DNA of 64,000 nucleotides from Isoetes taiwanensis (taxonomy: Eukaryota; Streptophyta; Lycopodiopsida; Isoetales; Isoetaceae), in contig JAJEKV010000095.1 of NCBI GenBank assembly GCA_021234155.1, positions 2,436,372-2,500,371 of the forward strand. The letters are read 5' to 3'. The translations under genes and the position numbers were made by a program. The notes under the pieces were generated by a model. It was not told the origin of the DNA, searched no databases, and saw only the letters and a program-made list of their open reading frames with translations. Every line of letters starts with the position of its first letter. Position 1 is the first letter of the stretch. Shown here one piece after another: positions 72 to 61,140 of the stretch.

Positions 72-1457
72 CTAGAAATTGCGGAGCCCAGCGTTCTTGG
101 ACATAGCTAGGAACTATAAATGTTGTGGGAGCGGTTGTTAGAAAGTGAACTCACATTTTAGGGTGCAATTAGAGCATTCAAGCTGTATTTCCCCGGCTCT
201 TCGAGTTCCCCTGGCTTTTCCACTTTTTCCTTTACTTTTTTTCCGCTTTTTATTTTTCCCCTCTTCATGCTGCTTTTTCTATTTCCTGCGGTTTTGTCTT
301 TTCCACTATCCCATTTCTTCCATTGCCCTTTTTCAGGTTTGCCCTTTTCCCATTTTTCCTTTTCTATTTTCCTTCCCTTTTCTCCCATTTCTTTTTGCCC
401 TTTAATTTTCCCTTATCCCCTCCTTTTTCCTTTTACATTTATTCCATTAATTAGTGTTTTTTTCTTTTTCCCTTTTTCTTTTTTTCCCCTCCCTTTTATT
501 TTCCGTTTTACTCTTTCTTTTTTCTCTTTTCCTTTTCCGTTTGCCCATCCCCACGCTTCCCTTTTTTCCATTCTCCTTTTTCTTTTTTCCTTCTCAATTT
601 TCCATTTTTCCACTCCCCATTTTTCCTTTTTCCTTTTTATTTCCCCCTTCTTTTCCCCCTTCCTTTTTTCCTTTTATCTTTTCATTTTCCTCCTTCCCTT
701 TCCCTTCCTTTAAACTTCCCTTTCCCTTTCCCTTTTCCCGATGGCCCTTTTCCTTCCTTTTTCCTCCTCTCCCAACCCTTTCTCTCTTTCTTTTTTTCCC
801 TTCCATTTCCCCCTTCCTTGGCCCTTTTTTTTTTTCTCTTTTCCCTTTCCCTTTTTCTAAGCCCTTTTTTCCAACCCTTTTCTCCACTTTTTTGTCTCTT
901 CTCATTTTTTCCTTCCCTTTTCCTTTGGCCCTTTTGTCTTCCCTTTTCCTTCGGCCCTTTTGCCTTCCTTTTGTCTTCCCTTTTCTCCATTTTTTTCTCT
1001 TCTCCCTTTTTTCCTTCCTTTTCCCCTTCCCTTTTGTCTTGCCTTTTCCTTTGGCCCTTTTCCTTCCTTTTTTTTCCTTTCCTTCCCTTTCCCTTTTCCT
1101 TCTCCACTTTTTTTTTTTTTTTTCTTTTCTCCCTTTTCCCCTTCTTTTTTCTATTTTCGTCTTTTTCCTTTTTTTAATTTTTACTTTTTATTTTCCTATT
1201 TCCCCCTTTTCCTTTCTCCCTTTCCTTTTGTCCTTTTCCCCTCCCTTTTGCTTTTTTCTCCATTTTGCCTTTCTTTCCACTTCCCTTTCCCATTTCACCC
1301 CTTGACTATCGGGATTGAGTGAATGCAGTATTGAAACTTGATCAAGATGAAATTTTAGTTGAAGTCCGCATGTCATCTTCACCATTGGTTGATAAAATCC
1401 TCAACGTTCGATCTAGGTCTCCATGGAAGACACACGCTATATTTTTATAATATAAGA
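72..1457 (-). mobile_element. Non-autonomous Helitron, polypurine-tract family, copy 1
   Basis: Read on the minus strand it starts with TC (TCTTATATTATAAA..) at 1457 and ends at CTAG (72-75). The hairpin near the 3' end (about 84-105) is degraded compared with the family form GCCCAGC-AAC-GCTGGGC. Flanks are A at 71 and T at 1458, and joining them restores the tRNA-unit spacer (aatgcA|TTAAATC), the A|T target expected of Helitrons. About 215-1305 is almost pure pyrimidine on the + strand, so purine on the element's own strand. There is no Rep/helicase gene. The long + and - reading frames here are only low-complexity Phe/Pro/Ser or Lys/Glu/Gly translations. It is an inverted copy of 7351-8777. 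Confidence 0.8.
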
Positions 1458-2877: not shown

Positions 2878-3195
2878 GCCAAAGATGTGGAATACTTCCG
2901 ATACTTCTTAGATCATTGAGATATTTAGAAGGATAGGATTTGGCTAGTCATTTATTCTCTCTCATTCAATCTCCTTATGTCATTATCAACATGATGTTTG
3001 ATGGTTGGAAGAGCAAGATTAGCTTTAACAAGATCTCATTTCTCACCCTATGGTGCAATCGGTCGGATTGCTTTCGATTATTATCCTTATGTCATTATCA
3101 TATTATAATGTTGTGTAATGGACCACGTGCCCTAACATCTAAACTCTAGAATATTACACCGAGATTAAATGACCTCGATCTTATGGTGAGGATTT

Positions 3196-7350: not shown

Positions 7351-8777
7351 TCTTATATTATAAAAATATAGCGTGTGTCTTCCATGGAGACCTAGATCGA
7401 ACGGTTGAGGATTTGATCAACCAATGGTGAAGATGACATGTGCGTGACTTCAACTAAAATTTCATCTTGACTGTTGCTTCAATACGATTCACTCAATCCG
7501 ATAGTCAAGGGGTGAAATGGGAAAGGGAAAAGGGAAAAGGGAAAAGGGAAAAGAAAGGCAAAATGGAGAAAAAAGCAAAAGGGAGGGGAAAAGGACAAAA
7601 GGAAAGGGAGAAAGGAAAAGGGGGAAATAGGAAAATAAAAAGTAAAAATTAAAAAAAGGAAAAAGAAGAAAATAGAAAAAAGAAGGGGAAAAGGGAGAAA
7701 AGAAAAAAAAAGTGGAGAAGGAAAAAAGGGAAAGGGCAGGAGAAAATGAAAAAGGAAGGAAAAAGGGCCAAAGGAAAAGGCAAGACAAAAGGGAAGGGGA
7801 AAAGGGAAGGAAAAAGGGAGAAGAGAAAAAAATGGAGAAAAGGGAAGACAAAAGGAAGGCAAAAGGGCCGAAGGAAAAGGGAAGACAAAAGGGCCAAAGA
7901 AAAAGGGAAGGGGAAAAGGGAAGGAAAAAAGGAGAAGAGACAAAAAAGTGGAGAAAAGGGTTGGAAAAAAGGGCTTAGAAAAAGGGAAAGGGAAAGAGAA
8001 AAAAAAGGGCCAAGGAAGAGGGGAAATGGAAGGGAAAAAAAAGAAAGAGAGAAAGGGTTGGGAGAGGAGGAAAAGGGAAGGGAAAAGGGCCATCGGGAAA
8101 AGGGAAAGGGGAAAGGGAAGCGAAAGGAAGGGAAAGGGAAGGAGGAAAATGAAAAAGATAAAAGGAAAAAGGGAAGGTGAAAAGAAGGGGGGAAATAAAA
8201 AAAGGAAAAAGGAAAAAATGGGGAGTGGGAAAATGGAAAATTGAGAAGGGAAAAAGAAAAGGAGAATGGAAAAAAGGGAAGCGTGGGGATGGGCAAACCG
8301 GAAAAGGAAAAAGAGAAAAAAGAAAGAGTAAAACGGGAAAATAAAAAGGGGAGGGAAAAAAAAAAGAAAAAGGGAAAAAGAAAAAACACGACGAATGGAA
8401 TAACAGAAAAGGGAAAAAGGAGGGGATAAGGGAAAAATTAAAGGGCAAAAAGAAATGGGAGAAAAGGGAAGGAAAAAATAGAAAAGGAAAAATGGGAAAA
8501 GGGCAAACATGGGAAAAGGGCAATGGAAGAAATGGGATAGTGGAAAAAGATAAACGAGAAATAGAAAAAGAAAAGAAGGAAAGAGGGGGAAAAAAAGGGA
8601 AAGTGGAAAAAGGCAAAGGGAAAAGGGAAAAAGCTAGGGGAACCTTGGAAGAGCTGGGAAATGCAGTTGAATGCTCTTAATTGTGCAATCTTAAAAATGT
8701 GAGTTCACTTAACAATTGCTCCAATGTATCATTTATAGTTCCTAGCTATGTCCAGCAACGCTGGGCTCCATTTCTAG
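7351..8777 (+). mobile_element. Non-autonomous Helitron, polypurine-tract family, copy 2
   Basis: Starts TCTTATATTATAAA after A7350. It ends with hairpin CCAGC-AAC-GCTGG at about 8751-8764, then TCCATTT and CTAG (8774-8777), followed by T8778. About 7515-8640 is almost only G and A. It is the inverted sister of 72-1457 over its whole length. It sits exactly in front of the TC start of the GST Helitron at 8778. It carries no transposition gene. Confidence 0.88.
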
Positions 8778-11329
8778 TCATGTTATAATGTTGTGTAATG
8801 GACCACGCCCTAACATCTACGGTCGAGATTAAATGACCTCGATCTTATGGTCGAGATTTGATGTGCTTTTTTTAGGGTTCGTTCATGGAGAGGGCTTATC
8901 GGAAGAATACCCGTGCTCCCATTTGGGAGCGGCACGACTCAAAGCGCCCACAAAAAGTACTGTTTTATCCACAACGGTAAGCCGCCTGGGAATCCGCTAT
9001 TATCCCGAGTACATTGAAGATACCGGAAGAATAGAGGTCCTAATTTGCTTCCGAAGATCCCTATGAAAGATATATATGTGGCTCGATTAAGGGCCGATGT
9101 TGTTGAGTATTTGTCTAGGGCATTATTGTGACACCAAACAAGCCGCATGCAGATGCTCGAAGCTTGGTTTCTAGGGTTTGTTGGCCACTGGAGGTGGTCA
9201 TACCACCAAGTCTGATGCCATGTGAAGTCCTAGATGCTCAGATGCCGATTTTGTGGAGCTACGATTTGGAGCGATCGCTTTTTCTAATATCTTTCCTCTC
9301 TCCACACCTCCGCTTGAATGCTATGTTGAATGGATTCTAAACTAGCAAGCCAAACTTGCAAATGCTTTTATGCCTTCGCGATGCTTGCCAAGATCCGCCA
9401 AAGCAAGGATTCTCCTCGCATTGTTGCTCCCAAATTTCTTGATTGGTCCGCAGAATAATCCAGCTTTTAAGGGATTCAACACAAGGAGCAAAAGATAAAT
9501 GTTTGAAGATCGGATGCGGATATGAGGAGGCGAACTGATTCAGGTTATATCTATGCATTTTTTGAGTTTAAATATTGAAAATATGATAGAAAAGCTAGAC
9601 CAAAATAAGTTGGAGAAGAAGATCGTTGAAACTGAGATAGGAGGTGCTCAAGCAAAGACAAATGGGAACTGCCAGAAGGTTTTAATTTTTGCTTGGCACA
9701 AGCTACTCAACTATGCACTATAATATGAATCTAGAAGAGCACATGTTTTTGCATAGTTTGAAGTTCTCTTTGTAGTGAGCATAGTCGTACGCAGCTCTTA
9801 GCAGGATCTCCTCCCATAAAGCCAAGGGATTTGCCAGATTATTTTCGTAATGCAGATCGCATAACATGGTTAGATTAACAACCTCCAAATTCTGTGCTTC
9901 AGAGAATGTGTTGTGGAATCTGAAATAAGTGGGGTGAACCTAAACAGGGAATTGCAGTTTGATTTTAAGAGCTTCTCAAGGTGGTTTTCAAGGCAGGTAA
10001 GAAGGTACAATTACTAGGCACACTGCAGTAATAATCTGTCTAATCTGATAGTATATTGGGTTGTCTTTATTCAGATGCGTGCAGAATTTCAATTTACGGC
10101 TAAGACAAGGGACAAGAGAGAAACCTGGGGAATGTGATTCAGTACACATATTATTGGGCATGCAAAACTATTTTGCAACAGATTCATAAAACCAATTTAG
10201 CAGCAAGAAATATAGAGCCCTGATCTCTGTCTTTGAATACAGGTCTAACATGCAAAGTCTAGGAGTTTTACACAGAAAGATTTGGCTGACCAAATATTTT
10301 AGTCCTTTAGCAGAGGGACTCTCAAATTACATGTTAAACTGCTATTTGACATCCGAAATGATGGTAGTTGTGTTGACATGTGTACCATTGATCCATGTAC
10401 AAGATAATCTAAATAAAACCGACGTTCAAAAGCAAAAACCATGTTAATGACTTTGTTTTATTTGTTGGGAAGCAAATTAAAATGGCATAGTTTTAGCGAC
10501 TATACATCATGAGCAAAATTCATGTGGCAGTCTCAAATGCAAGCTACATCTATAAAATAATAATTGTTATGCATTGTGTCCTAACAACATAGTCTAAGAC
10601 AGAAAACATGCTTGCCATATTTATACATGTCTGCATTGGTAAGGCAATCAAAGGAAAAAATTCTCCAAGCCAATCCGTAGCGTTTCTGCAAAAATTTACG
10701 TTAAAAATAATCCAAGATTTTTGCTCGCAACTACCAATATATAGCCTTGCCTTTTTTTCTTTTTCTTTTTTTTTTCTTTTTTTTTTGTGATTAAATCACA
10801 TCAGAATTTCATAGGTGAAGCAATTGTCTTTTTTTCCTTTGGTTTCCGAAGTGGAAGGATATTAAATCATAGCAGTGTTTGTCATCAACTGGAAGGATAT
10901 TAAATCATAGCAGCGTTTGTCATCAACTGGCCTGGTTAATACCTGCCTAGATTTTGGCACAAAAAAAATGTGGAGGCTTTTGATTAGAGAACAATGACTT
11001 CTTTGCTAAAAACACAAGTGCCTCCTAACACTACGAACATGAGTGCTTACCATCAATATTTCCTGCTCGAATTCTAATGAACACTTCACTTCCTGTTTAA
11101 TGGAATGTAGGCACTTGACTTCCTATTCAATGGAATGTATTTTTGTAATAAGATATCGACGGAACAAGGTAACCTTCCTATGAGCAGCATTTTGCAAATC
11201 AAATACAAGCACAACAAAAATACATTCTACATCAAGTTGCAAAAAGCAAATTCAACAAATTCTTTTGGAACAAAACCTATTATTTACAGGTCCCAACTTA
11301 TGCCCAACAACGCTGGGCACCATTACTAG
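8778..11329 (+). mobile_element. Helitron carrying tau-GST fragment, copy 2
   Basis: Begins TCATGTTATAATG directly after the preceding element's CTAG. Ends with hairpin GCCCAAC-AAC-GCTGGGC and CTAG at 11326-11329, followed by TTATCAACATGG. It is collinear with 3098-6522 but lacks that copy's internal duplication. 9480-11329 is nearly identical to 4690-6522; 8800-9450 shows many small CAG/CTG-type indels. Confidence 0.75.
8860..9120 (+). pseudogene. Captured tau-class GST fragment, copy c
   Basis: Same captured exon as at 4050-4335, with more frameshifts (for example cacaaaaagtactgttttatcc). Pieces of EYIED and LLPEDPYER can be read in different frames. Non-functional. Confidence 0.6.
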
Positions 11330-13478: not shown

Positions 13479-14842
13479 CAAAATGGCCTTTTCCATTTTC
13501 CCCCTCCTTGCTTTTTCCTTTTTCTATCTCCCCCTTTCCCTTTTTCCCTCCCATTTTCACATTCCCTTTTTCCTTTTACTTTATTTTATTTTTCTTTTCT
13601 CCCATTCCATCCCCTTCGCTTCCCTTTCCCCTTTTCCCTTTTCCTTTGTCTTTTTCTTTCTTTTTTACTAATGGCCTTTTTCCCTTCCCTTTTCCTCCTC
13701 TCCTGACCCTTTCTCTCTTCCGCTTTTATTCGTGTCCTTTTTCCCTTCCATTTCCCTCTCTTCCGCCTCCTTTTCCTTACCTTTTTCCCTTTCTTTTTCT
13801 CATGTCTTTTTTCCATTCCCTTTATTTCTCTTCCCCCTTTTACAGGGCCATTCCCCTTTCCTCCCTCTTTTCTCTCTTCCTTTTTTCCGTTTCTCTCCTT
13901 CTTTTCTCTTCCTCTTTTCCCCATGCCCTTTTTCCCTTTTGCCCCTCCCCTCCCTTTTTCCCTTTCCATCCCTTCTCCCCTCCCTTTATCTCTTTCCTTT
14001 TTGTTTTAACTGTCCTTTTTCCCTTCCTTTTTTCTCCTTTCCCGACCTTTTTCCTCTTCCCCTTTCCCGTTGTCCCTTTTCGCTCCCTCCTCCTCTCCCC
14101 TTTGCCCCTTTTCCTCTCCCTTTTCTCTTTTCCTTTTCCCTTCCCTTCTCTCTACCCTTTTCCTCATCCCCCTTTTCCCTTCCCTTTTACTCCTGTCCTC
14201 ACCCTTTCCCTCTTCTCCTTTTTGTACTGTCCCTTTTTCCTTTCTTTTCTCCCTTTCTTTTCCTTTCTCTTTTTTGTGTTTTTTGCCATTTCTTTTTCCC
14301 TTTTACTTTTTGCCTTTTTTTTTATGTTTCACTTTGCTCTTTTCTCCTCCTTTTTTCTCCTTTCCCCACCTTTTTCCTCTTCCCCTTTCCCAATGTTCCT
14401 TTTCGCTCCCTAATCCTCCCCTTTCTTTTTCCTTTCTTTTTTCCCTTTTTCTTTTCTTTTCCCTTTTCCTTTTCCCTTCCCTCCTCTCTACCCTTTTCCT
14501 CATCCCCTTTTCAACTTCCCTTTTACTCCTATCCTCATCCTTTCCATCCTTTCATTTTTGTAGTGTCCTTTTTTTCTTTATTTTCCCTTCCCTTTTTCGT
14601 GCTCTTTTCCCTTTCCTTTTTCCCTTTCTTTCTTTCCCTTTTACCCGTGCCTTTTGCCTTTCATTTTGCCTTTTTCTCCTCCCTTTTCCTTTTCCCTTTC
14701 CTCTTCAGACATTAGAGCATGGCCAATCATGATGGTGGGAAGTCGTGTGATAAATCTCGGTCTTCGGATGCAATTAGTTGATCTCAACCAATCCAAATTA
14801 GGGTTTGATTCATGACATACGCTAAAACTTTATAATATAAGA
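13479..14842 (-). mobile_element. Polypurine-tract Helitron, 3'-truncated
   Basis: On the minus strand the 5' end TCTTATATTATAAAG is at 14842, and the adjoining host sequence is TCAACATGG, the same A|T site used by other copies. The low-coordinate (3') end lacks hairpin and CTAG; the tract is joined directly to the start of a tRNA-Ser gene at about 13478. 13485-14705 is pyrimidine-rich on the + strand. 14710-14842 matches the 5' region of 44991-46867. Reading frames of 220-330 codons are low-complexity. Confidence 0.75.
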
Positions 14843-19831: not shown

Positions 19832-20257
19832 ACAAGTAATACAAATGAATACCTTCTTAATTAACAAGCACATACAACCAACTCAATCAAATGCATCTCA
19901 TAATCCAGTTCTCAAAAAATATCGTGGTCGCACAATAAGGTGCGAAATGGTTGTTCTTCTAATAAGTCCAAACAAATGATTATGCCAAGGCATAAAGCGA
20001 CAAGATTTGCTCAATCACCGTGTTTTTCCTTGCTTGAACTTGATATCATAAAAATTGAAAGAATTAACATGTGAATGAGTAACAATGTTGAGCATTGGTG
20101 TGCCACTAATGGAGGCTATGCATAAACCCTAGAATATTGCGTCCAAGTGGAAGAGTGCGTGGGGAAACCGAATGACAAACTCTAAGTATTAATCGAATGG
20201 GGCCGTTATGTGATAGTAGGGACTATAAAATGATATGAACAAGCTCCTACACGTGGA

Positions 20258-21698
20258 AAAATGGCCTTTTCCATTTTTCCCCCCTTGATTTTTCCTTTTT
20301 TTTCATGCCCCCTTTCCCTTTTTCCTCCCATTTTCACATTCCCTTTTTCCTTTTACTTTATTTTTATTTTTCTTTTTTAGATTCCATAGGATTTCCCACT
20401 TTCTCTGGGGCTTTGCATAAACTCTTTTCCCTTTTTCCCTTTCCTTTGTCTTTTTGATTCTTTTTACTAATTTCCTTTTTGGACATATGTCCGGGACTTT
20501 TTCTCATAATGAACAAGATTCCTCTTTTTCTCTTCAACATGGTTTAATGCCTTTTTCCCTTCCATTTCCCTCTCTTTCCAAGAACAAAATTAGAAGATTT
20601 GAACCCTTTTTCCATTTCTTTTTTAAAGCATTAAATGTCTTTTTTCCATTCCCTTTATTTAAAATCTTTTCCATTTAGACCACCAATGGCCAAGTAATCC
20701 TCTTTTCTCTCCTTCCTTTTTCCGTTTCTCTCCTTTACAACCAACTTCCTCTTTTCCCCATGCCCAAGTAATACCAAAAAAATACCTTTTTTTCCCTTTC
20801 CATCCCTAAGTCCCTCCCTTTTATCCTTTCCTTTTTGTTTTGCTCAATGATCCTTTTTCCCTTCCTTTTTTCTCCTTTCCATAAAAAATTTTTCCTCCTC
20901 CCTTTCCCTTTGTCCCTTTTGGAGGCCTCCTCCTCTCCCCTTTTGCCAAGAGTTTTCCTTTCCCCCTTTTCTCTTTTCCTTTTTCATTCCCTTCCCAATC
21001 TCTCTATTGGTTTTTCCTCATCCCCCCTTTCCCTTCCCCCCCTTTTCCTTTCCTTCCCCCCTTTTTTCTTCTCCTTTTTTTTTTTTTCCTTTTTTCCTTT
21101 TTTTTTTTTTTTTTTGACAAACTCTTTTAATCTTTTTTTATTTGACTATAAAATTGAACAAGCTGCCTTTTCCTTTCACTTTTCCCCTTGATCTTTTCTC
21201 CTCCCACATCCTTTCCCCACCTTTTTTCCTCTTTCCCCTTTGAGATGTTTTTTCCTCCCTAATCCTCCCCTTTCTTTTTTCCTTTTTCTCTTTTTTTTTC
21301 TGTTTTCTTGGTTCCTTTTCCCTTCCCTCCCTCCTTTATTTTCCCTCATCCCCTTTTTGAACTTCCCCTTTCGCCCATCCTATATCCTCATCCTTTTAAT
21401 GCATCCTTTCATTTTTTTTAGTGTCCTTTTTTTTCTTTAAATTTTTTCTTGAACTTTGCATTGGTTAATTTTCCTTTCCTTTTTTTCCCTTTCTTTCTTT
21501 CCCCACTAGACCACTTTTGCCTTTCATTTTGCCTTTTTCTCCTAATTCCTTTTCCTTTTCCCAACTCTTCAGACATTAGAAATGGCCAATCATGATGGTG
21601 GGAAGTCATAAAAATATCTTCGGATGCAATTAGTTGATCTCAACCAATCCAAATTAGGGTTTGATTCATGACATACGTTAAAACTTTTAAATATAAGA
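20258..21698 (-). mobile_element. Polypurine-tract Helitron interleaved with tRNA-unit sequence
   Basis: Collinear with the Helitron at 13479-14842: same first motif (aatggccttttccatttt) and same 5' end (atataaGA|TCAACATGG at 21698). Short pieces of the tRNA unit in correct unit order are spliced in throughout, such as caacatggtttaatgc, ccaagaacaaaattagaag, tagaccaccaatg, acaaccaact and gacaaactc. No single insertion explains this. I infer an assembly or polishing artefact. Frames here are meaningless. Confidence 0.65.
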
Positions 21699-28061: not shown

Positions 28062-28290
28062 CTCAATTGCTCAAAACGTTGGAGCCCACGTGGCATGTTT
28101 GAGACACCTTGGCATGTTGGAGCCTAGATGGCATGTTGGAGCCTAGGTGGCATGTTGGAGCCCACGTGGCATGTTTGAGCCACCTTGGCATGTTGGAGCC
28201 TAGGTGGCATGTTGAAGCCCATGTGGCATGTTTGAGCCACCTTGTCATGTTGGAGCCTAGGTGGCATGTTTGAGCCACCTTGCCATGTCG
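28062..28290. repeat. 19-bp satellite array 1
   Basis: Head-to-tail variants of a 19-bp unit: GGCATGTTTGAGCCACCTT, GGCATGTTGGAGCCTAGGT and GGCATGTTGGAGCCCACGT. About a dozen copies. Frames through it only encode the repeat. Confidence 0.93.
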
Positions 28291-36249: not shown

Positions 36250-37835
36250 CTTGGCATGCCATGTCACCACTTGGGGTGCCTAGGTGGCATGCTTGAGACT
36301 TGGTGGCATGCCCGAGCCACCTTGGCATGTTGGAGCCCCGCATGACATGTTGGAGCCACCTTGGCATGTTGGAGCCCACGTGGCATTATGGAGTCCACGT
36401 GGCATGTTTGAGCCACCTTGGCATGTTGGAGCCTAGGTGGCATGTTTGAGCCCACCTTGGCATGTTTGAGCCACCGGCATGTTTGAGCCCTCGGGTGGCA
36501 TGTTGGAGCCTAGATGGCATGTTTGAGCCACCTAGGAATGTTGGAGCCTAGGTGGCATGTTGGAGCCCACGTGGCATATTTGAGCCACCTTGGCAAGTTG
36601 GAGCATAGGTGGTATGTTGGAGCCCAAGTGGGCATGTTTGAGCACGCTGGGAGCCTAGGTGGCATGTTTGAGCCATTTTGTCATGTTGCAGCCTAGGTGG
36701 CATGTTTGAGCCACCTTGGCATGTTTGAGCCACCTTGGCATGTTTGAGCCTAGGTGGCATGTTGGAGCCACCTTGGCATGTGGGAACCACCTTGGCATGT
36801 TTGAGCCTAGGTGGCATGTTTGAGCCACCTTGGCATGTTGGAGCCCATGTGGCATGTTTGAGCCACCTTGGCATGTTTGAGCACGTTGGAGCCTAGGTGG
36901 CATGTTTGAGCCACCTTGGCATGTTGGAGCCACCTTGGCATGTTGGAGCCTAGGTGGCATGTTGGAGACCACGTGGCATTTTTGAGCCACCTTGCCATGT
37001 TAGAGCCTAGGTGGCATGTTGGAGCCTCAGGTGGCATGCTTGAGCCACCTTTGCATGTTGGAGCCCACGCAGCATATTTGAGCCACCTTGGCAAGTTGGA
37101 GCATAGGTGGCATGTTAGAGCCCGCGTGGCATGTTTGAGCATGTTGGAGCCTAGGTGGCATGTTGGAGCCACCTTGGTGCGTGGCATGTTGGAGCCCACG
37201 TGGCATGTTTGAGCCTAGATGGCATGTTAGAGCCACGGTGGCATGTTTGAGCCAACTTGGCATATTTAAGCCTAGGTGGCATGTTGTGAGCCACCTTGGC
37301 ATGTTGGAGGCTAGGTGGCATGGTGGAGCCCACGTGGCATGTTTGAGCCACCTTGGCATGTTTGAGCCTAGGTGGCATGTTGGAGCCTAGGTGGCATGTT
37401 TGAGCACACCTGGCATGCATGTTTGAGCCACCGGCATGTTTGAGCCTAGGTGGCATGTTGGGAGCCTAGGTGGCATGTTTGAGCCACCTTGGCATGTTTG
37501 AGCCTAGGTGGCATGTTGGAGCCACCTTGGCATGTTGGAGCCTAAGTGAGCCCCGCATGGCATGTTTGAGCCTATGTGGCATGTTTGAGCCACCTAGGAA
37601 TGTTGGAGCCTAGGTGGCATGTTGGAGCCCACGTGGCATATTTGAGCCACCTTGGCAAGTTGGAGCATAGGTGGCATGTTGGAGCCTCGTGGGCATGTTT
37701 GAGCACGTTGGAGCCTAGGTGGCATGTTTGAGCCATTTTGTCATGTTGGAGCCTAGGTGGCATGTTGGAGCCACCTTGGCATGTTTGAGCCTAGGTGGCA
37801 TGTTAGAGCCACCTTGGCATGTTGGTGCCCACGTT
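36250..37835. repeat. 19-bp satellite array 2
   Basis: About 80 copies of the same 19-bp variants as at 28062-28290, in the same orientation. Units GAGCCACCTT, GAGCCTAGGT and GAGCCCACGT alternate irregularly. A few single-base slips (at 37020, 37288, 37460) change the frame, so the 60-130 codon open frames are repeat by-products. Confidence 0.95.
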
Positions 37836-44990: not shown

Positions 44991-46867
44991 CTAGTAATGG
45001 TGCCCAGCGTTGCTGGGCAAATGTTGGGAACATTTGTGGATGGAAACCTATTCAACTTAGACTCATTAACCAAGTCCATCATATCTAGGCTATAAGAGGT
45101 GTGCATTTGATAACCTTCCCTTTGCTCTATCCTGCATATCATTTTTTCCTCATTTTCTTACACACTTTCTTTTTTCCCTTTTCTTGTTTTTCCTGCACAT
45201 TTACTTTTCCCCTTCTCTCTCTTTTTTTTTCTTTTCTTTTTTACCCTCTTCTCCCTCCTCTTTTCCTTCCTTTTCTCCTTCTCATTTTTCCCTTTCCCTT
45301 TCCCGTTTTTGACGACTTTTTTCCTTCCCTTTTCACCTTTCTCCACCCTTCCCATTTTTCTCATGCTCTTTTTTTTCCTTTCCTTTTCCCATTCCTTTTG
45401 CTTTTCTCTTTTGCCTTCCCTTTTCTCATGCCCTTTTTGCATTTCCTTTTCCCACCTTTTTTTTTTGTTTTTTCTTCCTCCTCACCCTCTTCTTCTTTAT
45501 CTCATGTCTCTTTTTTCCCATTTTCTTCTTCCTTTTTTCTCATGCCTTTTTTCCTTTCCTTCCTCCTTTCCGCCTCCCTTTTTTTTTTTTCCCTTTCCTT
45601 CTTTTTTTTTTTCATCATTTCCCACCCTTTCCCTTTTTCCCCGTGCCCCTTTTCCTCTTTCCTTCCCCCTTCCTTTTCTCTTTCCCTTTCCCTTTCCCTT
45701 TCTTTTTTTTTTTCCTTTTTTTCCCATGTATTTTTCCATTCCCTTTTTTCCACTTTTTTTTACTTGCCTTTTCTTCCGCCTTTCCCTACCCTCTTCCCTT
45801 TTCCCCGTCCCTATTCCCCTTTTTTTTCTTTTTCTTTTCCCTTTCCTATGCTCTTTTTTCCCTTTATTTTTTACCCTTTCCTCATCCTTTCCCTTTTCTA
45901 GTTTTTTTCAGCCCTTTTTCCTTCCTCTTTTCCATTTTCCCTCCTTATTCCTTGTGTTCTTTTTTCTTTCCCCTTTCCCCTTTCGCCTCCCATTTCCTTT
46001 TTCCTTTTCCTTCTTTTTTTCATCCTTTTCTCTTTTTCCATGCCCTTTTCCTCTTTCCTTTCCACCCTTTTTTTTTTCCTTCTCTATTTTCCTTTCCATT
46101 TTCCCCACACCCTTTTCCATTCCATTTTTTCCACCTTTTTCACATGCCCTTTTTCCTCCTTTTCCCACCCTCTTCCCCTTTTCCCTTTTCCTCTTTTCCT
46201 ATTCCATGTTTTCTGTTCTCTTTTTGCTTTTCGCTTTTCCCTTTTCCCTTTTCCATCTCGTTTTCCCTTTTTTTTTTTTTCCCTTTCCTCATCCTTTTCC
46301 TCTTCTCGTGCCACTTTCTCCTTCCTCTCTCATTTCCCTCTCCCTTTTCCTCATGCCCTTTTCCCTTTTTTGCCTCCTTTTTTCCTTTTTCCCTTCCCTT
46401 TCTATTTTTCCATGCCCTTTTTTTCCTTCTCTCCATCATTCTTATCTTCCCATTTTTCCTTAGTCACCATTTCCGTCTTCACCTTTTTCCGTTGCCCTAT
46501 TTTTCTTCCTTTTTCCTCCCTTCCCTTTTCTTTTCCCCTTTATTCTGTCCTCACCCTTTCCCCCCTTTTCCTTTTCATAGTGTCCTTTTTTCCTTCCTTT
46601 TTCTCCCTTTCTTTTTCTTTCCCTTTTTCGTGTTTCTTTTCCCTTTCCTTTTCCTTCTCAGTCTTTCCCTTTTACCCATGCCTTTTTGCCTCTCACTTTG
46701 CCCTTTTCTCTGCCATTTTCCCTTTCCTCTTAAGAGATCAGAGCATGGCCAATCACGGTGGTGGGAAGTTGTGCGATAAATCTCGGCTGTCGAATGCAAT
46801 CAGACGATCTCAACTATCTAAATTAGGGTTTGATTGAAGACATACGCTAAAACTTTATAATATAAGA
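44991..46867 (-). mobile_element. Non-autonomous Helitron, polypurine-tract family
   Basis: Both ends are clear. A44990|CTAG with hairpin GCCCAGC-GTT-GCTGGGC at the low end, and ..TATAATATAAGA|T at 46866-46868. Length 1.88 kb. 45130-46735 is pyrimidine-rich on the + strand. 46735-46867 matches 14710-14842. It is nested inside the 13.6-kb CACTA element. The reading frames of 266-384 codons are Phe/Pro/Ser low-complexity with no support as genes. Confidence 0.88.
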
Positions 46868-47738: not shown

Positions 47739-48835
47739 ACACCCACTCTAACATGCCACGTGGGCTCCAACATGCCACCTAGGCTCCAACATGCCAAGGT
47801 GGCTCAAACATGCCAAGGTGGCTCAAATATGCCACGTGGGCTCCAACATGCCACGTCGGCTCCAACATGCCACCTAGGCTCCAACATGCTAAGGTGGCTC
47901 AAACATGTCACCTAGGCTCCAACATGCTAAGGTGGCTCAAACATGTCACCTAGGCTCCAACAAGCCAAGGTGGCTCACAACATGAGGCTCCAACAAGCCA
48001 AGGTGGCTCACAACATGCCACCTAGGCTCCAACATGCCAAGGTAGCTCAAATGTGCCATGCAAGCTCCAATATGCCACCTAGGCTCCAACATGCCAAGGT
48101 GGCTCAAACATGCCATGCGGGCTCCAACATGCCGAGGTGGCTCAAACATGCCACGTGGGCTCCAACATGCCACCTAGGCTCCAACACACCAAGGTGGCTC
48201 ATATGTGCTACCTAGGCTCCAACATTCCAAGGTGGCTCGGACATGCCACGGGCTCCAACATGCCATCTAGGCTCCAACATGCCAAGGTGGCTCAAACATG
48301 TCACCTAGGCTCAAACATGCCAAGGTAGCTCAAACATGCCAAGGTAGCTCAAACATGCCACGCGGGTTCCAACATGCCACCTAGGCTCCAACATACTAAG
48401 GTGGCTCAAACGTGCCACATAGGCTCCAAGCCACCTAGGCTCAAACATGCCAAGGTGGTCGAAATATGCCAAAGTGGCCACGTGGGATCCAACATGCCAC
48501 CTAGACTCAAACATCCCAAGGTGGCTCAAACATGCCACGCAGGCTCTAACATGCCACCTAGGTCCAACATGCCAAGGTGGCTCAAATATGCCATGTGGGC
48601 TCCAACATGTCACCTAGGCTCCAACACACCAAGGTGGCTCAAACATGCCACTTGGGCTCCAACATGCCACCTAGACTCAAACATGCCAAGGTGGCTCAAA
48701 CATGCCACCTAGGCTCCAACATGCCAAGGTGGCTCAAACATGCCACCTAGGCTCCAACATGCCAAGGTGGCTCAATCATGCCACCTAGGCTCCAACATGC
48801 CACCTAGGCTTAAACATGCCAAGGTGGCTCAACAC
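47739..48835 (-). repeat. 19-bp satellite array 3, left arm
   Basis: Reverse-complement orientation of the 19-bp unit (AAGGTGGCTCAAACATGCC, ACCTAGGCTCCAACATGCC, ACGTGGGCTCCAACATGCC), about 55 copies. It turns around at about 48835. Confidence 0.95.
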
Positions 48836-48839
48836 AAGG

Positions 48840-49360
48840 AGCGTAGGTGGCATGTTTCAGCCACCTTGTCATGTTTGAGCCTAGGTGGCGTGTTTGAGAT
48901 ACATTGGCACGTTGGAGCCTAGGTGGCAAGAACCAAGCCACCCAGGCATGTTGGAGCCTAGGTGGCATGTTGGAATCGTTGGGCATGTTTGAAGAAGCCC
49001 TCTTGCCGTGTTTGGAGCCTAGGTGGCAAATCCAAAGCCCAAAATGGCATGTTTGAGCCACCTTGGCATGTTGGAGCCTAGGTGGCATGTTGGCATGTTG
49101 GAGCCTAGGTGGCATGTTTGAGCCACCTTGGGAGCCTAAGTGGCATGTTTGAGCCATATTGGCATGTTGGAGTCCACGTAGCATGGTTGAGCCACCTTGG
49201 CATGTTGGAGCCTAGGTGGCGTGTTTGAGCCATATTGGCATGCTGGAGCCCACGTGGCATGGTTGAGCCACCTTGGCATGTTGGAGCCTAGGTGGCACGT
49301 TGGAGCCTAGGTGGCGTGTTTGAGCCATATTGGCATGTTGGAGCGCACGTGGCCAAGATT
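48840..49360 (+). repeat. 19-bp satellite array 3, right arm
   Basis: Forward orientation, about 25 copies, partly degraded at 48920-49040. With the left arm it makes a head-to-head inverted repeat. Confidence 0.93.
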
Positions 49361-52213: not shown

Positions 52214-52253
52214 CTTGCGCCAAGAACAAAATTGAAAGAGTTGAACCACAGGA

Positions 52254-52324
52254 TGCATTGGCCGAGAATCGAACTTGGGTCTGTACCGTGGCAGGGTACT
52301 ATTCTACCACTAGACCACCAATGC
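52254..52324 (-). tRNA. tRNA-Gly(GCC), T-stem variant
   Basis: 71 nt, same A-C mismatch in the T stem (CCAAG) as at 2317-2387; all else intact. The flank after the gene (caagtaataaatg) lacks three bases. Confidence 0.75.
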
Positions 52325-52707
52325 ACAAGTAATAAATGAATACCTTCTTAATTAACAAGCACATACAACAAACTCAATTAAATGCATCTCATAATCCAGT
52401 TCGCAAAAAAATATCGTGGTCGTACAATAAGGTGTAGGAATGGTTGTTCTTCTAATAAGTCCAAACAAATGATTATGCCAAGGCATAAAGCGACAAGATT
52501 TGCTCAATCACCGTGTTGTTCCATGCGACATGTAAATGAGTAACAATGTTGAGCATTCGTGTGCCACTAATGGAGGCTATGCATAAACCCTAGAATATTG
52601 CGTCAGTGGAAGAGTGCGTAGGGAATCTGAATGACAAACTCTAAGTATTAATCGAATGGACGTATGTGATAGTAGGGACTATAAAATAATATGAACAAGC
52701 TCCTACA

Positions 52708-52785
52708 CGTGATAGGATTCAAACCTATGCGAGCGAAGCCCACATGATTTCTGGTCATGCCCAATAACCACTCTGACATATCCAC
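52708..52785 (-). pseudogene. tRNA-Ser(AGA), type-2, acceptor deletion
   Basis: 78 nt. Four bases are lost in the acceptor (cgtgatagg for cgtggatgatagg), C56 is T, and the loop is CCAGAAA. Confidence 0.75.
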
Positions 52786-53030
52786 GACGACATCTGGAAT
52801 ACTTCCGATTCTTCTTAGATCATTGAGATATTTAGGAGGATAGGATTTGTCTAGTCATTTGTTCTCTCATTGTGATGTTTGATGGTTGGAAGAGCAAGAT
52901 TAGCTTCGATCTCATTTCTCACACTATGGTGCAATCGATTGCTCAGTTATCCTTATGTCATTATCAACACATTAAATCTTCTTTTTGGCTCTTGCGCCAA
53001 GAACAAAATTGGAAGAGTTGAACCACAGGA

Positions 53031-53101
53031 TGCATTGGCCGAGAATCGAACTCGGGTCTGTACTGTGGCAAGGTACTATTCTACCACTAGACCACCAATG
53101 C
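53031..53101 (-). tRNA. tRNA-Gly(GCC), anticodon-stem variant
   Basis: 71 nt. GCC anticodon is kept, but the loop is TTGCCAC and the closing pair of the anticodon stem is C-A (GTACC/AGTAC). Both changes are C to T on one strand or the other at CG/CHG sites. The same form occurs at 54684 and 56338. Function is doubtful but possible; the B box is intact. Confidence 0.75.
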
Positions 53102-53519
53102 ACAAGTAATACAAATGAATACCTTCTTTATTAACAAGCACATACAACCAACTCAATCAAATGCATCTCATAATCCAGTTTTCAAAAAAATATCTTGGTC
53201 GTACAATAAGGTGCAGGAATGGTTGTTCTTCTAATAAGTCCAAACAAACGATTATGCCAAGGCATAAAGCAACAAGATTTGCTCAATCACCGTGTTTTTC
53301 CATGCTTGAACTTGATATCATAAAAAATTGAAAGAATTAACATGTGAATGAGTAACAATGTCGAGCATTGGTGTGCCACTAATGGGGGCTATGCATAAAC
53401 TCTAGCATATTGCGCCAGTGGAAGAGTGCGTGGGGAAACTGAATGACAAACTCTAAGTATTAATCGAATGGACGTATGTGATAGTAGGGACTATAAAATA
53501 ATATGAATAAGCTCCTACA

Positions 53520-53601
53520 CGTGGATGATAGGATTCAAACCTATGCGAGCGAAGCCCACATGATTTCTGGTCATGCCCAATAACCACTCTGACACATCCA
53601 C
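53520..53601 (-). pseudogene. tRNA-Ser(AGA), type-2 variant
   Basis: 82 nt, loop CCAGAAA, C56 to T in the T loop. Identical in type to 12688-12769. Confidence 0.7.
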
Positions 53602-53858
53602 GACGACATCTGGAATACTTCCGATTATTCTTAGATCATTGAGATATTTAGGAGGATAGGATTTGTCTAGTCATTTGTTCTCTCTCATTGTGATGTTTGA
53701 TGGTTGGAAGAGCAAGATTAGCTTCGATCTCATTTCTCACACTATGGTGCAATCGATTGCTCAGTTATCCTTATGTCATTATCAACATGGTTTAATGCAT
53801 TAAATCTTCTTTTTGGCTCTTGCGCCAAGAACAAAATTGGAAGAGTTGAACCACAGGA

Positions 53859-53929
53859 TGCATTGGCCGAGAATCGAACTCGGGTCTGTACCGTGGCAGG
53901 GTACTATTCTACCACTAGACCACCAATGC
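53859..53929 (-). tRNA. tRNA-Gly(GCC), intact
   Basis: 71 nt, same sequence as 11410-11480 with complete stems, intact A and B boxes and TTTT downstream. Confidence 0.94.
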
Positions 53930-54344
53930 ACAAGTAATACAAATGAATACCTTCTTAATTAACAAGCACATACAACCAACTCAATCAAATGCATCTCATA
54001 ATCCAGTTCTCAAAAAAATATCTTGGTCGTACAATAAGGTGCAGGAATGGTTGTTCTTCTAATAAGTCCAAACAAACGATTATGCCAAGGCATAAAGCAA
54101 CAAGATTTGCTCAATCACCGTGTTTTTCCATGCTTGAACTTGATATCATAAAAAATTGAAAGAATTAACATGTGAATGAGTAACAATGTCGAGCATTGGT
54201 GTGCCACTAATGGGGACTATGCATAAACTCTAGAATATTGCGCCAGTGGAAGAGTGCATGGGGAATCTGAATGACAAACTCTAAATATTAATCGAATGGA
54301 CGTATGTGATAGGGACTATAAAATAATATGAACAAGCTCCTACA

Positions 54345-54426
54345 CGTGGATGATAGGATTCGAACCTATGCGAGCAAAGCCCACATGATTTCTAGTCATG
54401 CCCAATAACCACTCTGGCACATCCAC
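54345..54426 (-). tRNA. tRNA-Ser(AGA), intact
   Basis: 82 nt, same sequence as 7089-7170: type-1 loop CTAGAAA, TTCGAAT, full variable arm. Confidence 0.94.
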
Positions 54427-54683
54427 GCCAGCATGTGGAATACTTCCGATACTTCTTAGATCATTGAGATATTTAGGAGGATAGGATTTGGCTAGTCATT
54501 TATTCTCTCTCATTCTGATGTTTGATGGTTGGAAGAGCAAGATTAGCTTCGATCTCATTTCTCACCCTATGGTGCAATCGATTGCTCAGTTATCCTTATG
54601 TCATTATCAACATGGTTTAATGCATTAAATCTTCTTTTTGGCTCTTGCGCCAAGAACAAAATTAGAAGAGTTGAACCACAGGA

Positions 54684-54754
54684 TGCATTGGCCGAGAATC
54701 GAACTCGGGTCTGTACTGTGGCAAGGTACTATTCTACCACTAGACCACCAATGC
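54684..54754 (-). tRNA. tRNA-Gly(GCC), anticodon-stem variant
   Basis: 71 nt, same C-A mismatch and TTGCCAC loop as at 53031-53101. Confidence 0.75.
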
Positions 54755-55173
54755 ACAAGTAATACAAATGAATACCTTCTTAATTAACAAGCACATACAA
54801 CCAACTCAATCAAATGCATCTCATAATCCAGTTAAGCAAAAATATCGGTGGTCGCACAATAAGGTGCGGGGAATGGTTGTTCTTCTAATAAGTCCAAACA
54901 AACGATTATGCCAAGGCATAAAGCAACAAGATTTGCTCAATCACCGTGTTTTTCCATGCTTGAACTTGATATCATAAAAAATTGAAAGAATTAACATATG
55001 AATGAGTAACAATGTCGAGCATTGGTGTGCCACTAATGGGGGCTATGCATAAACTCTAGAATATTGCGCCAGTGGAAGAGTGCGTGGGGAAACTGAATGA
55101 CAAACTCTAAGTATTAATCGAATGGACGTATGTGATAGTAGGGACTATAAAATAATATGAATAAGCTCCTACA

Positions 55174-55255
55174 CGTGGATGATAGGATTCAAACCTATGC
55201 GAGCGAAGCCCACATAATTTCTGGTCATGCCCAATAACCACTCTGACACATCCAC
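55174..55255 (-). pseudogene. tRNA-Ser(AGA), type-2 variant
   Basis: 82 nt with C56 to T and loop CCAGAAA. It also has cataattt on the + strand, which breaks one more anticodon-stem pair. Confidence 0.72.
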
Positions 55256-57179: not shown

Positions 57180-58118
57180 CTAGTAACGGTGCCCAGCGTT
57201 GCTGGGCAACAGTTGGTAACATGTAAATGATAATCCTGCGAAATACAACATATTGAATTTGTGCCAAAACATAAGGGAGGATATAAGGAATTTATGCAGC
57301 AGTAGCTATGCCATTGTATCAGGGAAAGTTTTTGCCGATCACACAATTTCAAGCACGCATTGGCCATTTTTTGGGCAAGTTTTCGTCCATGCCCCTACTA
57401 AATTTGGAAGTTAATGGAAAAGCTTCAAATAAATCCATGTTTATGGGACAATAGCTTCATTACTTATATATAGTTGCATAAACCAACTCATGCAATCTCC
57501 TACCAAGATGCATTGGGGCACATGCAAAGGTCTTAGCTACCATAGGTTGTGATTTCAATTGATTATGCCAAATTACATTTGTAAAGACATGGTCAATGCT
57601 TTCTCCAAGCCAATGGACCTGAATTTGCAGTTGTAAAGGCGGATAATATTTTCGCTTAAATCTGTATCTCTAGCATGCTGGTGACAAATGGACAAACTAT
57701 TATTTGTAGTGTTGCTTGTCTGATGTTCAGCACCAACCAAGTATTTGTAGTATATCAACCAATTATTTGTAGTGTTGTTTGCTTAATGTTCAATGTAGAG
57801 GGAACACCTGATGTTCAGAACCACCTGATTATTTGTGATGTTGTTTGCCTGATGTTCAGTTCTAACCATCTAATGTTCAAGACCATCAGATTATTTGTAG
57901 TGTTGCTAGTCTGACATTTTTTTGCCCTAGTACCAAATTGACAGCAAGATCTGTGACTCTGCTATCAATTTGATGAACAGAAACACAAATATTAATAGCA
58001 AAGAGAGCAGATCAATATATTAATCACTGATTTTACATTTCTTATACTATATTGAATATGAAGATGACGTCAATCCTCTTTTGGCCACCCTATAACCTTA
58101 TTTTTCTACTAGTAATGG
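57180..58118 (-). mobile_element. Helitron 3' end with about 0.9 kb of unrecognised interior
   Basis: A57179|CTAGTAACGGT with hairpin GCCCAGC-GTT-GCTGGGC. The 5' end was not located; the sequence runs to the next insertion at 58119. The interior has no coding signal apart from the short repeats at 57690-57910. Confidence 0.6.
57690..57910. repeat. Imperfect tandem repeat, three to four copies
   Basis: Repeated phrase attatttgtagtgttgcttg..ctgatgttca..accaacca (about 65-85 bp period). The degenerate copies keep attatttgt and gatgttca. Confidence 0.8.
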
Positions 58119-60471
58119 TGCCCAGCGTTGCTGGGCAAACATTGGGAACCTCTCAATGATATGTGGTCTTTATTGAGATACGGTTTTTTCTCATACATGC
58201 AAACTTATCAATGACTTATAAAGGTTTTTTCTCAACCTTTTTTATGTACCCTTTTTCCTTCTTTCCCCATCCTCTTCCCCTTTTTCCCCTTTCCACTTTC
58301 TCCTTTCTTGTTTCTTTTTTCTTCTCCCTTTCCCATACTCTTTTTCCCTTTCTTTTTTCTATTTCCTCACCCTTTCCCTCTTCCTTTTTTTCTCGTGCCC
58401 TTTTCTCCTTCCTCTTTTCCTCTTTTCATATTCCTTGCTCCCTACCCTTTGTCTATTCTACTTTCTGATATCACCTTTTTTTCCTCATTTTTTCCATCCT
58501 TTTCCCTCTTCCTTTTTCTCGATGCTCTTTTTGCTTTCCTTTTCTCTTTCTTCACCCTTTCTCTTTTCCCTTTTTTTCAAAACCTTTCCTTTTTCTCTTT
58601 TTCTCGTTCCCTTTTCCCAAGTTCTCTTTTTCCCTTTTCCCCCTCTCTTTTCCTTTTTACTTTTCTTTTTCCCATAGACTTTGCAACCTTTTCTTATTTT
58701 CCCTTACCTTTTTCTACTTTTCTCACCTTTACTTCTTACCCTTCTCGCGGTGCTCTTATTCCTTTCCCTTTCCCCCTCGCTTATTCTATTCCTTTTTCTA
58801 TTTCCTTTTATCTTTCCCTTTTTCCTTTTCTCCTTCTCTTTCCTTTTTCCTTTTACCTTTCTTTTATTCCTTTTCCCTTTTCCCTTTTCCCTTTCATCGT
58901 TTCTCCTTTTCCCTTCCCCTCTTCCTTTTCCCTTTTCCCTTTTCCCTTTCATCGTATTTCCTTTTCCCTTCCCCTCTTCCTTTTCCCTTTTCCCTTTTCC
59001 CTTTTCCCTTTCATCGTTTTTCCTTTTCCCTTCCCCTCTTCCTTTTCCCTTTTCCCTTTCATCGTTTGTCTTTTTCCCTTCCCCTTTTCCTTTTCCCTTT
59101 TCCCTTTCATCGTTTTCCTTTTCCCTTCCCTTTTCCGTTTCCCTTTTCCCTTTTTCTCTTTCATCGTTTTTCTTTTTCCCTTCCCTTTTCCTTTTCCCTT
59201 TTCCCTTTTCCCTTTCATCATTTTTTTCCTTTTCCCTTCCCTTTTCCTTTTCCCTTTTCCCTTTTTCCCTTTCATCGTTTTTTCTTTTCCCTTCCCCTTT
59301 TCCTTTTCCCTTTTCCCTTTTCCGTTTTCCCTTTTCCCTTTCATCGTTTTCCCTTTTCCTTTTTCCCTTTTCCCTTTCATTATTTTTCCTTTTCCTTTTT
59401 CCCTTTCATCGTTTTTTCCTTTTCCCCTTTCCCTTTTCCCTTTCATCGTTTTCCTTTTCCCTTTCCCCTTTTCCCTTTTCCTTTTCCTTTGCCTTTTTCC
59501 CTTTCATCGTTTTTCCTTTTCCCTTTCCCTTTCCCTTTTCCTTTTCCCTTTTTTCCTTTTATCGTTTTTCCTTTTCCCTTCCCCTTTTCCGTTTCCCTTT
59601 TCCCTTTTCCCTTTCATCGTTTTTTCCTTTTCCCTTCCCCTTTTCCGTTTCCCTTTTCCCTTTTCTCTTTCATCGTTTTCCTTTTCCTTCCCTTTTTCCC
59701 TTTTCCTTTTCCCTTTCATCATTTTTCCTTTTCCCTTCCCCTTTTCCCTTTCCTTTTTCCCTTTCATCGTTTTCCTTTTCCCTTCCCATTTTCCTTTTCT
59801 CTTTTTTCCCTTTCATCGTTTTCCTTTTCCCTTCCCTTTTCCTTTTCCCCTTTTCCCTTTCATCTTTTCCCTTTTCCCTTCCCATTTCCTTTTGTTTTTT
59901 TCGCTTTCATCGTTTTCCTTTTCCTTTTCCCTTTTCCACTGACTATCATTATCGTCGGATCTCATCAATCCTACGCCCGGTCAGTATGTTGGAGCCTCTG
60001 GACACCTCTCGTTTCGATTATGCTCAATTATGATTGGGGACCTATGATTTTAAGATGTCGAATACGAGTTTGCCTAAGGTTTTGATGGTATATCGTGCCC
60101 TCTATACGGTTTCATTTAAGCTTTTAGAATATGAAATACGGATTCAACCTCTACTAAAATAACTCAATGTCCTAATAAGACTACTTTAACCAATCTAACT
60201 AGTGAGCTAATGTGACTATTTTTTATCTTAAATCTATGTTTTTTTTTTATAATAACCCATTGAATTGTTTTAGGGATATGGTCTATGGTTTCAAGAATTA
60301 TATCTATATCAAATCCCCCTGGAACCCCCTGTTATTTTGCTACATATTCAAGATGAAATTTTAGTTGAAGACACGCACACATCATCTCCACCGTTGGTCA
60401 ATCAAATCCTCGACCGTCCGATTTAGGGGACCGTTCACAACGGACAAACGGTATAATTTTATAATATAAGA
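58119..60471 (-). mobile_element. Non-autonomous Helitron, polypurine-tract family, longest copy
   Basis: A58118|CTAGTAATGGT with hairpin at the low end; ..TATAATATAAGA at 60470-60471 is the 5' TC end on the minus strand. 58240-59940 is pyrimidine-rich on the + strand. 60345-60425 (caagatgaaattttagttgaag) matches the 5' region of the copy at 72-1457. The 544- and 450-codon frames are Phe/Pro/Ser/Leu low-complexity on a repeat and not supported as genes. Confidence 0.88.
58850..59940. repeat. Pyrimidine minisatellite of about 50 bp, some 20 copies
   Basis: Regularly spaced CCCTTTCATCGTTTTTCC followed by CTTTTCCCTTCCCC-type runs. The TTTCATCGTTTT marker recurs about every 40-65 bases, with occasional ATCATT variants. 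It lies inside the Helitron. Confidence 0.92.
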
Positions 60472-61140
60472 CTAGTAATGGTGCCCAGCGTTGCTGGGCA
60501 TAGGTTGGAAGTCTGTAAATGTTTTGACCGCAATGAGAAAAGTGTGCAGTAATCTTTTATTATAACAAAAATATCCAAACATAGTAGCAGTGCTTAGCTC
60601 ATAAGTACCCGCATGTATATCACCTTTACTGTAAGAATGATCCCATGGTGTTGGTATTCTATCGATCGCCTTTAGTGTAATTTTATGTGACCGTGAGCAG
60701 GATCGGGCTTCAAAATTGCATCAAAGCTTTCAGAAATCCCAGGACAATTTTGAGGGATCAAAGTTTGGCCTAAGTTCCCTCTGTTCCCTAAGGGTAGATG
60801 AGCCGATTTATAGTAAAGACTTATTAAGATCAACTGTTTGGAAGTATTAATATAGAGGACCAAATAAACCAATGTTATCAAAATCAAATCCAAGCATAAG
60901 TAGAACTCAATTGGCAACGCATATCTTAAATAATTTCATGATTGATAGGTATTGTTAGTCATCAGTACAATTCTAGCACATGCAACTCTAAAAAGTAATT
61001 ATAACCCCTTCCCCCCTCTCCCCCCCCTCCCGTTTTGGGGATTATTGCATATAAATTGGAAAATATATTTATTAGGTTATGCCTTACACTATACCATAAA
61101 ATGGGCACACTAACATAATCTATGCCCAGCACTGCTGGGG
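60472..61140 (-). mobile_element. Helitron 3' end directly abutting another Helitron
   Basis: CTAG at 60472-60475 immediately after the GA (5' TC) end of the preceding element. Hairpin GCCCAGC-GTT-GCTGGGC follows. The 5' end is not found. A degraded hairpin (gcccagcactgctggg) at about 61124-61140 may mark a further old copy. 61009-61040 is a short C-rich run. Confidence 0.65.

What the first reader, a model, noticed from the sequence alone, without database searches (positions are those of the whole stretch)
7351..8777. A Helitron family made mostly of a kilobase-scale polypurine tract
Six copies (72, 7351, 13479, 20258, 44991, 58119) carry 1.1-1.7 kb of nearly pure G/A, always on the element's sense strand, between a TCTTATATTATAAA 5' end and the hairpin-CTAG 3' end. 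Copies in both genomic orientations obey this rule. Long purine-pyrimidine tracts can form triplex (H-DNA) or R-loops. Their maintenance inside a mobile element is odd and may relate to rolling-circle replication, strand displacement or tract expansion.
Basis: partly seen in the sequence, partly recalled or inferred. Interest (0 to 1): 0.8.

Follow-up and report, generated by a model that had tools for sequence, protein, structure and literature searches.

The report
Helitron transposons filled with purine tracts
Hundreds of copies of a plant jumping gene, a non-autonomous Helitron, consist mostly of a kilobase-long stretch of almost only G and A on the strand thought to be transferred; the stretch is real and looks inherited, but no function for it is shown.

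Summary
A 1.66-Gb plant genome carries non-autonomous Helitrons with a tract of about 0.9-2 kb, about 91% G/A, on the element's sense strand. Exact 5' ends: 502. Of 40 sampled, 39 enter a purine tract at 129-165 nt (34 tracts at least 900 bp, five 132-596 bp), none a pyrimidine tract; the odd one departs from the family there. Hairpin-CTAG end, A|T insertion, empty sites and a RepHel partner establish Helitron identity, although 15 of 40 lack a recognised 3' end. The tract is not a general transposition signal: it is absent from the 1.5 kb before 29 of 40 same-type 3' ends, from the parts read of 3 autonomous copies, from 20 of 20 copies with a related tip, and from 9 of 16 with the identical 14-base tip in a variant context. 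Fixed orientation mostly reflects descent. An apparent depletion of purine-breaking changes (P=7.5e-8) lost significance on a tree (P=0.39). Tracts are degenerate period-6/7 repeats, partly mosaic, joined to different ends. Best reading: a simple-repeat passenger. New variant of a known kind.

The parts
72..1457 (-). E1: Helitron copy, TC...CTAG, purine tract on sense strand, inserted in the tRNA-Gly/Ser array
   Evidence: joined flanks match 13 array units across the junction, with small differences near it
7351..8777 (+). E2: the element of the finding; tract about 7515-8640
   Evidence: the same flanks lie joined without the element at window 3097|3098, 77% identity over 375 positions
13480..14842 (-). 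E3: copy with intact 5' end, 3' end lost; tract abuts the sequence before tRNA-Ser
20257..21698 (-). E4: related to E3, with a changed 5' tip and an interrupted tract; 3' end lost
44991..46867 (-). E5: full-length copy of the commonest sampled subfamily (GTTTTAGCG)
58109..60471 (-). E6: full-length copy with about 48-bp tandem units in the tract; its 5' end directly abuts another Helitron's CTAG
8752..8777 (+). 3' terminus of E2: hairpin CCAGC-AAC-GCTGG followed by GCTCCATTTCTAG
   Evidence: 3069 exact matches to the group pattern genome-wide
60472..60497 (-). 3' end of a neighbouring Helitron, immediately upstream of E6's 5' end; no purine- or pyrimidine-rich run in the window just before it

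Best explanation
These are non-autonomous Helitrons mobilised in trans by a RepHel family that shares their 3' hairpin-CTAG end and has a similar 5' tip. Their interior is a degenerate repeat of GGGAAA/GGGAAAA-like units that entered, or expanded in, ancestors of this group and has been copied passively ever since. Shown: termini, A|T insertion, empty sites, a partner with the same 3' end, strand orientation, repeat periodicity, partly mosaic tracts joined to different ends. Inferred: trans-mobilisation, passive carriage, renewal of the tract by slippage and duplication, and end exchange inside the tract.
For: Termini and site: the base before the tip is A in 38 of 40 if an extra TCT in 7 copies is read as part of the tip (raw: A 31, T 7, G 2); the two G belong to another CTAG; 25 of 25 copies with a recognised 3' end are followed by T. 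Empty sites for E1 and E2. Partner: a RepHel ORF (PF14214 4.1e-30, PIF1 4.8e-57) ends in CCAGCAACGCTGGGTACCGTTACTAG and is followed directly by a 5' end plus a purine tract of about 430 nt. Three more RepHel loci have similar 5' tips upstream and no tract in the 6.5 kb read of each. Passenger reading: relatives lacking the tract are numerous; gap openings per aligned base are 0.0249 in the tract and 0.0106 in the ends (120 pairs; 0.0142 and 0.0085 in 10 pairs of another subfamily); autocorrelation is highest at lags such as 6, 7, 13, 14 in 9 of 9 representatives; tracts are partly mosaic and joined to several 3' ends; tree-placed changes show no significant depletion of purine-to-pyrimidine changes on internal branches.
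Against: Tract types that can no longer be aligned still share about 91% purine (27 of 29 complete elements 90.2-92.4%), more uniform than simple decay would suggest. Every tract examined has purine on the same strand. Shared variants are poorer in purine-breaking changes than singletons (25:131 against 69:87), most of all at A positions (2:42 against 28:30), and a looser tree count gave P=0.02; I ascribe this to recurrent A/G changes, but the strict tree ratio still points the same way. Tract bearers are 11 of 40 sampled 3' ends, so they spread well.
Confidence: 0.68

Rival explanations
1. The tract helps transposition by keeping the transferred strand free of hairpins. The Helitron helicase peels off the top strand and a 3' hairpin ends the reaction; a purine-only strand can form no Watson-Crick hairpin, so the terminator would be the only structure met.
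For: Predicted DNA folding of the sense tract is -0.2 to -1.0 kcal/mol per 100 nt in 8 of 8 elements chosen, against -5.8 to -8.5 in 8 tractless relatives (8 of 29, some related to each other) and -7.4 to -7.5 in the parts read of 3 autonomous copies. In Helraiser only the top strand is used in vitro and the hairpin acts as terminator (passages of PMC5876387, PMC4778049).
Against: Low folding follows trivially from purity and holds for the antisense strand too. Most sampled relatives exist as copies without a tract. No constraint on purity could be shown once homoplasy was controlled.
Confidence: 0.14
2. The tract is a platform for end exchange: similar low-complexity tracts allow recombination or template switching between copies, making new 5'/3' combinations while keeping strand orientation. 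This is compatible with the passenger reading.
For: Two 5' clusters occur with six 3' clusters among 29 complete elements (three of the six have one member; numbers depend on the thresholds), and 3' cluster 1 occurs with both 5' clusters. L037's tract exceeds the null maximum against A-type tracts in windows starting at 150, 230, 310 and 470, and against the L009 type at 790; L033 matches L037 and E1/E2 only at 230-550.
Against: Helitron 3' ends also change by read-through and truncation without any tract (PMC4778049 passages). No breakpoint was mapped to base resolution, and several matches are only just above the null maximum of 160 (89 reversed windows).
Confidence: 0.25
3. The tract is selected because it forms H-DNA, G-quadruplexes or R-loops that open the element for the transposase.
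For: GGG-run quadruplex motifs occur on the sense strand in 26 of 29 elements and on the antisense strand in 0 of 29.
Against: Of 7 tracts tested, mirror repeats are clearly above a Markov-3 control in E2 and E6, about two s.d. above in L034, near it in E5 and L035, and below it in L012 and L016; quadruplex motifs cover only about 0-11% of a tract and are absent in three.
Confidence: 0.04
4. Assembly or sequencing artefact.
For: E4 shows words resembling its own flanks scattered in the tract, as a wrong consensus might.
Against: 22 copies on many contigs align to one reference at 81-96% identity, and the empty sites of E1 and E2 are clean.
Confidence: 0.01

Closest known systems
Plant non-autonomous Helitrons, for example Xuan elements of the wheat Xuan-Feng family (passages of PMC13286980)
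   Same: Seen in the passages: hairpin 11 nt before the 3' end, no transposase, dependence on autonomous relatives, classification by 30-bp ends. TC/CTRR ends and A|T target are recalled as general plant Helitron features
   Different: The words purine, microsatellite and GA-rich do not occur in that paper's main text
DINE-1 / HINE elements, non-autonomous Helentrons (passages of PMC4067079)
   Same: Rolling-circle elements carrying microsatellites or tandem repeats; in some HINE copies repeats fill about 50% of the element
   Different: Subterminal inverted repeats, palindromes at both ends and TT or T-rich target; here A|T insertion, and the repeat is a purine tract filling most of the element
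Lepidopteran Helitron-like elements associated with (GAAA)n microsatellites (title in the reference list of PMC4067079 only)
   Same: Helitron-like element linked with a purine microsatellite
   Different: By its title that element disrupts (GAAA)n arrays; paper not read
Helraiser / Helibat1 (passages of PMC4778049 and PMC5876387)
   Same: TC/CTAG ends, hairpin 11 nt from the 3' end, RepHel transposase; the mechanism model is taken from it. [quoted passage not shown]
   Different: Bat element; no tract mentioned in the passages seen

Membership tests
Helitron (non-autonomous) | 5' TC and 3' CTRR termini | tested here: met
   502 exact 5' ends, 3069 exact 3' ends, reversed controls 0; both ends recognised in 25 of 40 sampled copies, no 3' end recognised in 15
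Helitron (non-autonomous) | Short hairpin about 10 nt upstream of the 3' end | tested here: met
   CCAGC-AAC-GCTGG, 9 nt before CTAG in E2; 60-nt tips fold at -6.0 to -11.6 kcal/mol in 8 elements
Helitron (non-autonomous) | Insertion between A and T without target duplication | tested here: met
   38 of 40 preceded by A (31 raw, 7 after reading an extra TCT as tip), 25 of 25 followed by T; empty sites of E1 and E2
Helitron (non-autonomous) | No terminal inverted repeats | tested here: inconclusive
   None seen by eye in the printed ends; no formal search was run
Helitron (non-autonomous) | RepHel-encoding partner with matching ends | tested here: met
   Same hairpin and CTAG in L081, one base different; similar but not identical 5' tips upstream of Rep in L084-L086. 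No single autonomous copy was read end to end
Helitron (non-autonomous) | Rolling-circle transposition in trans | not testable with these tools
   Needs an assay
Helentron/DINE-1 non-autonomous elements | TT or T-rich target | tested here: not met
   A|T target
Helentron/DINE-1 non-autonomous elements | Subterminal inverted repeats | not tested
   No search was run for them

The most novel reading that the evidence does not exclude
Helitrons in this plant have repeatedly come to consist of a purine-only transferred strand because it works: a hairpin-free strand speeds peeling and leaves the 3' hairpin as the only stop signal, while the shared tract lets copies swap ends. The filler would then be a cis-acting module defined by base class rather than by sequence.
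Probability: 0.12. Interest if true: 0.82.

Novelty: new variant of a known kind. Interest (0 to 1): 0.5.

Why it matters
Kilobase purine-only DNA dispersed in hundreds of mobile copies is a natural experiment on how non-B-prone DNA survives replication and transposition. With RepHel genes of the same group in the genome, the question whether the make-up of the transferred strand matters for Helitron movement becomes testable. The tracts may also be a source of assembly error and of misleading purine-skew signals.

Tried and rejected
Selection on purity: in 22 copies of one subfamily, shared variants showed far fewer purine-to-pyrimidine changes than singletons (25:131 against 69:87, P=7.5e-8; P=4e-9 and 7e-7 with other windows), while the flanks showed no contrast (P=0.73-0.75). 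A first version on 16 copies gave P=2e-5 in the tract but also P=0.03 in the same direction in the flanks. The contrast was strong at run edges and at A positions, not significant inside base runs (P=0.42), and on a tree the ratio was 24:112 on internal and 81:299 on terminal branches (P=0.39). Recurrent A/G changes at run edges probably explain it. A looser tree count gave P=0.02. Not used as evidence for constraint. Of 25 sequences gathered for this set, L014, L017 and L028 were dropped (63-64% identity to the reference).

H-DNA: not supported. Origin of the tract from the purine-rich part of the autonomous element: rejected by eye; 200-base windows there reach at most 69% purine and lack the tract's repeats. 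One common origin of all tracts: not shown; several types do not align above a reversed control. Plant identity: rbcL found, species not determined. Papers: searches for Helitron with polypurine, purine-rich, microsatellite/tandem repeats, homopurine/triplex/R-loop/GA-rich and purine/hairpin terms listed no title or abstract start describing a polypurine Helitron. The listings were capped (20 of 35, 4 of 4, 15 of 45, 12 of 1,037, 6 of 6); one search was for the mechanism. Passages of four papers were read, none in full.

Full report
OBSERVATION. The six loci are real. In 300-base windows the only stretches with at least 80% purine or pyrimidine coincide with them. Read from the 5' end, each is purine-rich. 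Four of six are complete (E1, E2, E5, E6). E3 and E4 lost the 3' end and run into sequence that in other array units precedes tRNA-Ser. E6 ends at 58109.

GENOME-WIDE. The host is a 1.66-Gb assembly, a plant by its rbcL (species unknown). The 5' pattern occurs 502 times and the 3' pattern 3069 times, both with zero reversed controls. I sampled 40 5' ends: 34 of the 100 rows listed, and 6 of the 43. 39 of 40 enter a sense-strand purine tract at 129-165 nt; 34 tracts are at least 900 bp and five are 132-596 bp. The exception, L002, departs from the family at about position 133 with sequence beginning TGTGACG, by eye perhaps an LTR. None has a pyrimidine tract. A 3' end was recognised in 25 of the 40. 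Of 40 3' ends taken from the 100 listed, 11 have a tract reaching to within 56-149 nt of the end, all purine on the sense strand; 29 have none there, one of these (L054) having a 291-bp purine stretch near the far end of the 1.5 kb read. A rough product, 11/40 of 3069, is about 840 tract-bearing ends.

WHAT IT IS. The elements are Helitrons: TC and CTAG ends, a 3' hairpin, A before 38 of 40 (7 of them after reading an extra TCT as part of the tip) and T after 25 of 25. E1's joined flanks match 13 units of the tRNA array across the junction, and E2's flanks lie joined at 3097|3098. Six of 40 copies abut, or sit three bases from, another 5' end or a CTAG (L027's upstream CTAG lacks a recognisable hairpin); head-to-tail Helitrons are known (passage of PMC5876387). 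L004's flanks read TCTTATATTA and TAATGT, as if it had inserted into another 5' tip. A RepHel ORF of 994 codons (PF14214, PIF1) in L081 ends with the same hairpin and CTAG, one base different, and is followed directly by a 5' end with a purine tract; 40 copies of its 3' region were scored among 649 candidates. Three other RepHel loci from that list have similar tips about 5 kb upstream (TCCTATATTATAATG, TCTTTTATTATAAAA, TCTTTTATTATAATG) and no tract in the 6.5 kb read; their 3' halves were not read.

WHERE THE TRACT IS MISSING. 20 of 20 sampled copies with the tip variant ATCTTWTATTATAATGTTTTNNTGT (206 exact places) lack it in their first 600 nt. Of 16 sampled from 35 places with the identical 14-base tip but a variant context, 5 have it, 2 have one that breaks off (L110, L116) and 9 lack it in the first 500 nt. 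The tip alone does not decide: the element after L081's RepHel and the one after L040 have an AATG tip and a tract. The tract is thus a trait of certain subfamilies, recognisable by their 5' subterminal sequence.

ANATOMY. In 29 complete elements (25 sampled and 4 in the window), with 160 and 150 nt trimmed off the ends, the interior is 90.2-92.4% purine in 27, 86.4% in E6 and 79.2% in L036; G is 32-38%. Autocorrelation is highest at lags such as 6, 7, 13 and 14, though only modestly (0.49-0.61 against means of 0.43-0.46), and E6 has about 48-bp units. Elements of one subfamily align at up to 97% identity; elements with different tract types fall to 62-66%, which A/G-only sequence may give without homology. 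Two 5' clusters combine with six 3' clusters, and some tracts are mosaics.

MECHANISM. In Helraiser only the top strand is cleaved and joined in vitro, and the 3' hairpin acts as terminator (passages of PMC5876387 and PMC4778049). By analogy the purine strand is the transferred one here; that is inference. The sense tract is almost without predicted structure, which fits a facilitating role but follows from purity alone. Evolutionary tests gave no firm support for constraint: the strong contrast between shared and singleton variants lost significance when changes were placed on a tree, though a looser count kept P=0.02. I therefore favour a hitchhiking simple repeat renewed by slippage and duplication, with end exchange in or near the tract as the most interesting open side-process.

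KNOWN OR NEW. Repeats inside rolling-circle elements are known: DINE-1/HINE carry microsatellites, and in some copies repeats fill about half the element (passages of PMC4067079). A plant Helitron group made mainly of a purine tract did not appear in the capped listings of the searches made, which cover open-licence papers only. I rate it a new variant of a known kind.

LIMITS. The listed places come in contig order, so samples lean towards small contigs. Only exact patterns were counted. Tree-based tests used 22 copies. Other genomes were not compared.

Noticed in passing
2315-23663 and 52251-56906: Array of tRNA-Gly(GCC) and tRNA-Ser(AGA) genes, all on the - strand; in 53028-56906 the unit is about 825 bp (25 genes by ARAGORN; 19 Rfam matches). 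E1 to E4 lie in or beside this array.
   Followed up: partly
20257-21698: E4 looks like E3 with words resembling its own flanks (CTTGTTC, TTTTATAGTC, CCATGTTGA) scattered through the tract; perhaps a consensus error in polypurine DNA.
   Followed up: no
8778-8830 and 3098-3160: The sequence right after E2 begins TCATGTTATAATGTTGTG and resembles another Helitron 5' tip, so E2 seems to sit exactly at the A|T boundary of an older insertion.
   Followed up: partly
28078-28288, 36314-37829, 47746-49344: Minisatellite with 19-bp and 57-bp periods (GTTGGAGCCAACTTGGCAT-like) in three places.
   Followed up: no
3' ends at 6522(+), 11329(+), 44576(-), 57086(-), 57180(-), 60472(-): Further Helitron 3' ends of the same group in the window that belong to none of the six tract elements.
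   Followed up: no
L001-L040, 5' flanks: 7 of 40 copies carry an extra TCT before the 5' tip, a three-base variant of the 5' end.
   Followed up: no
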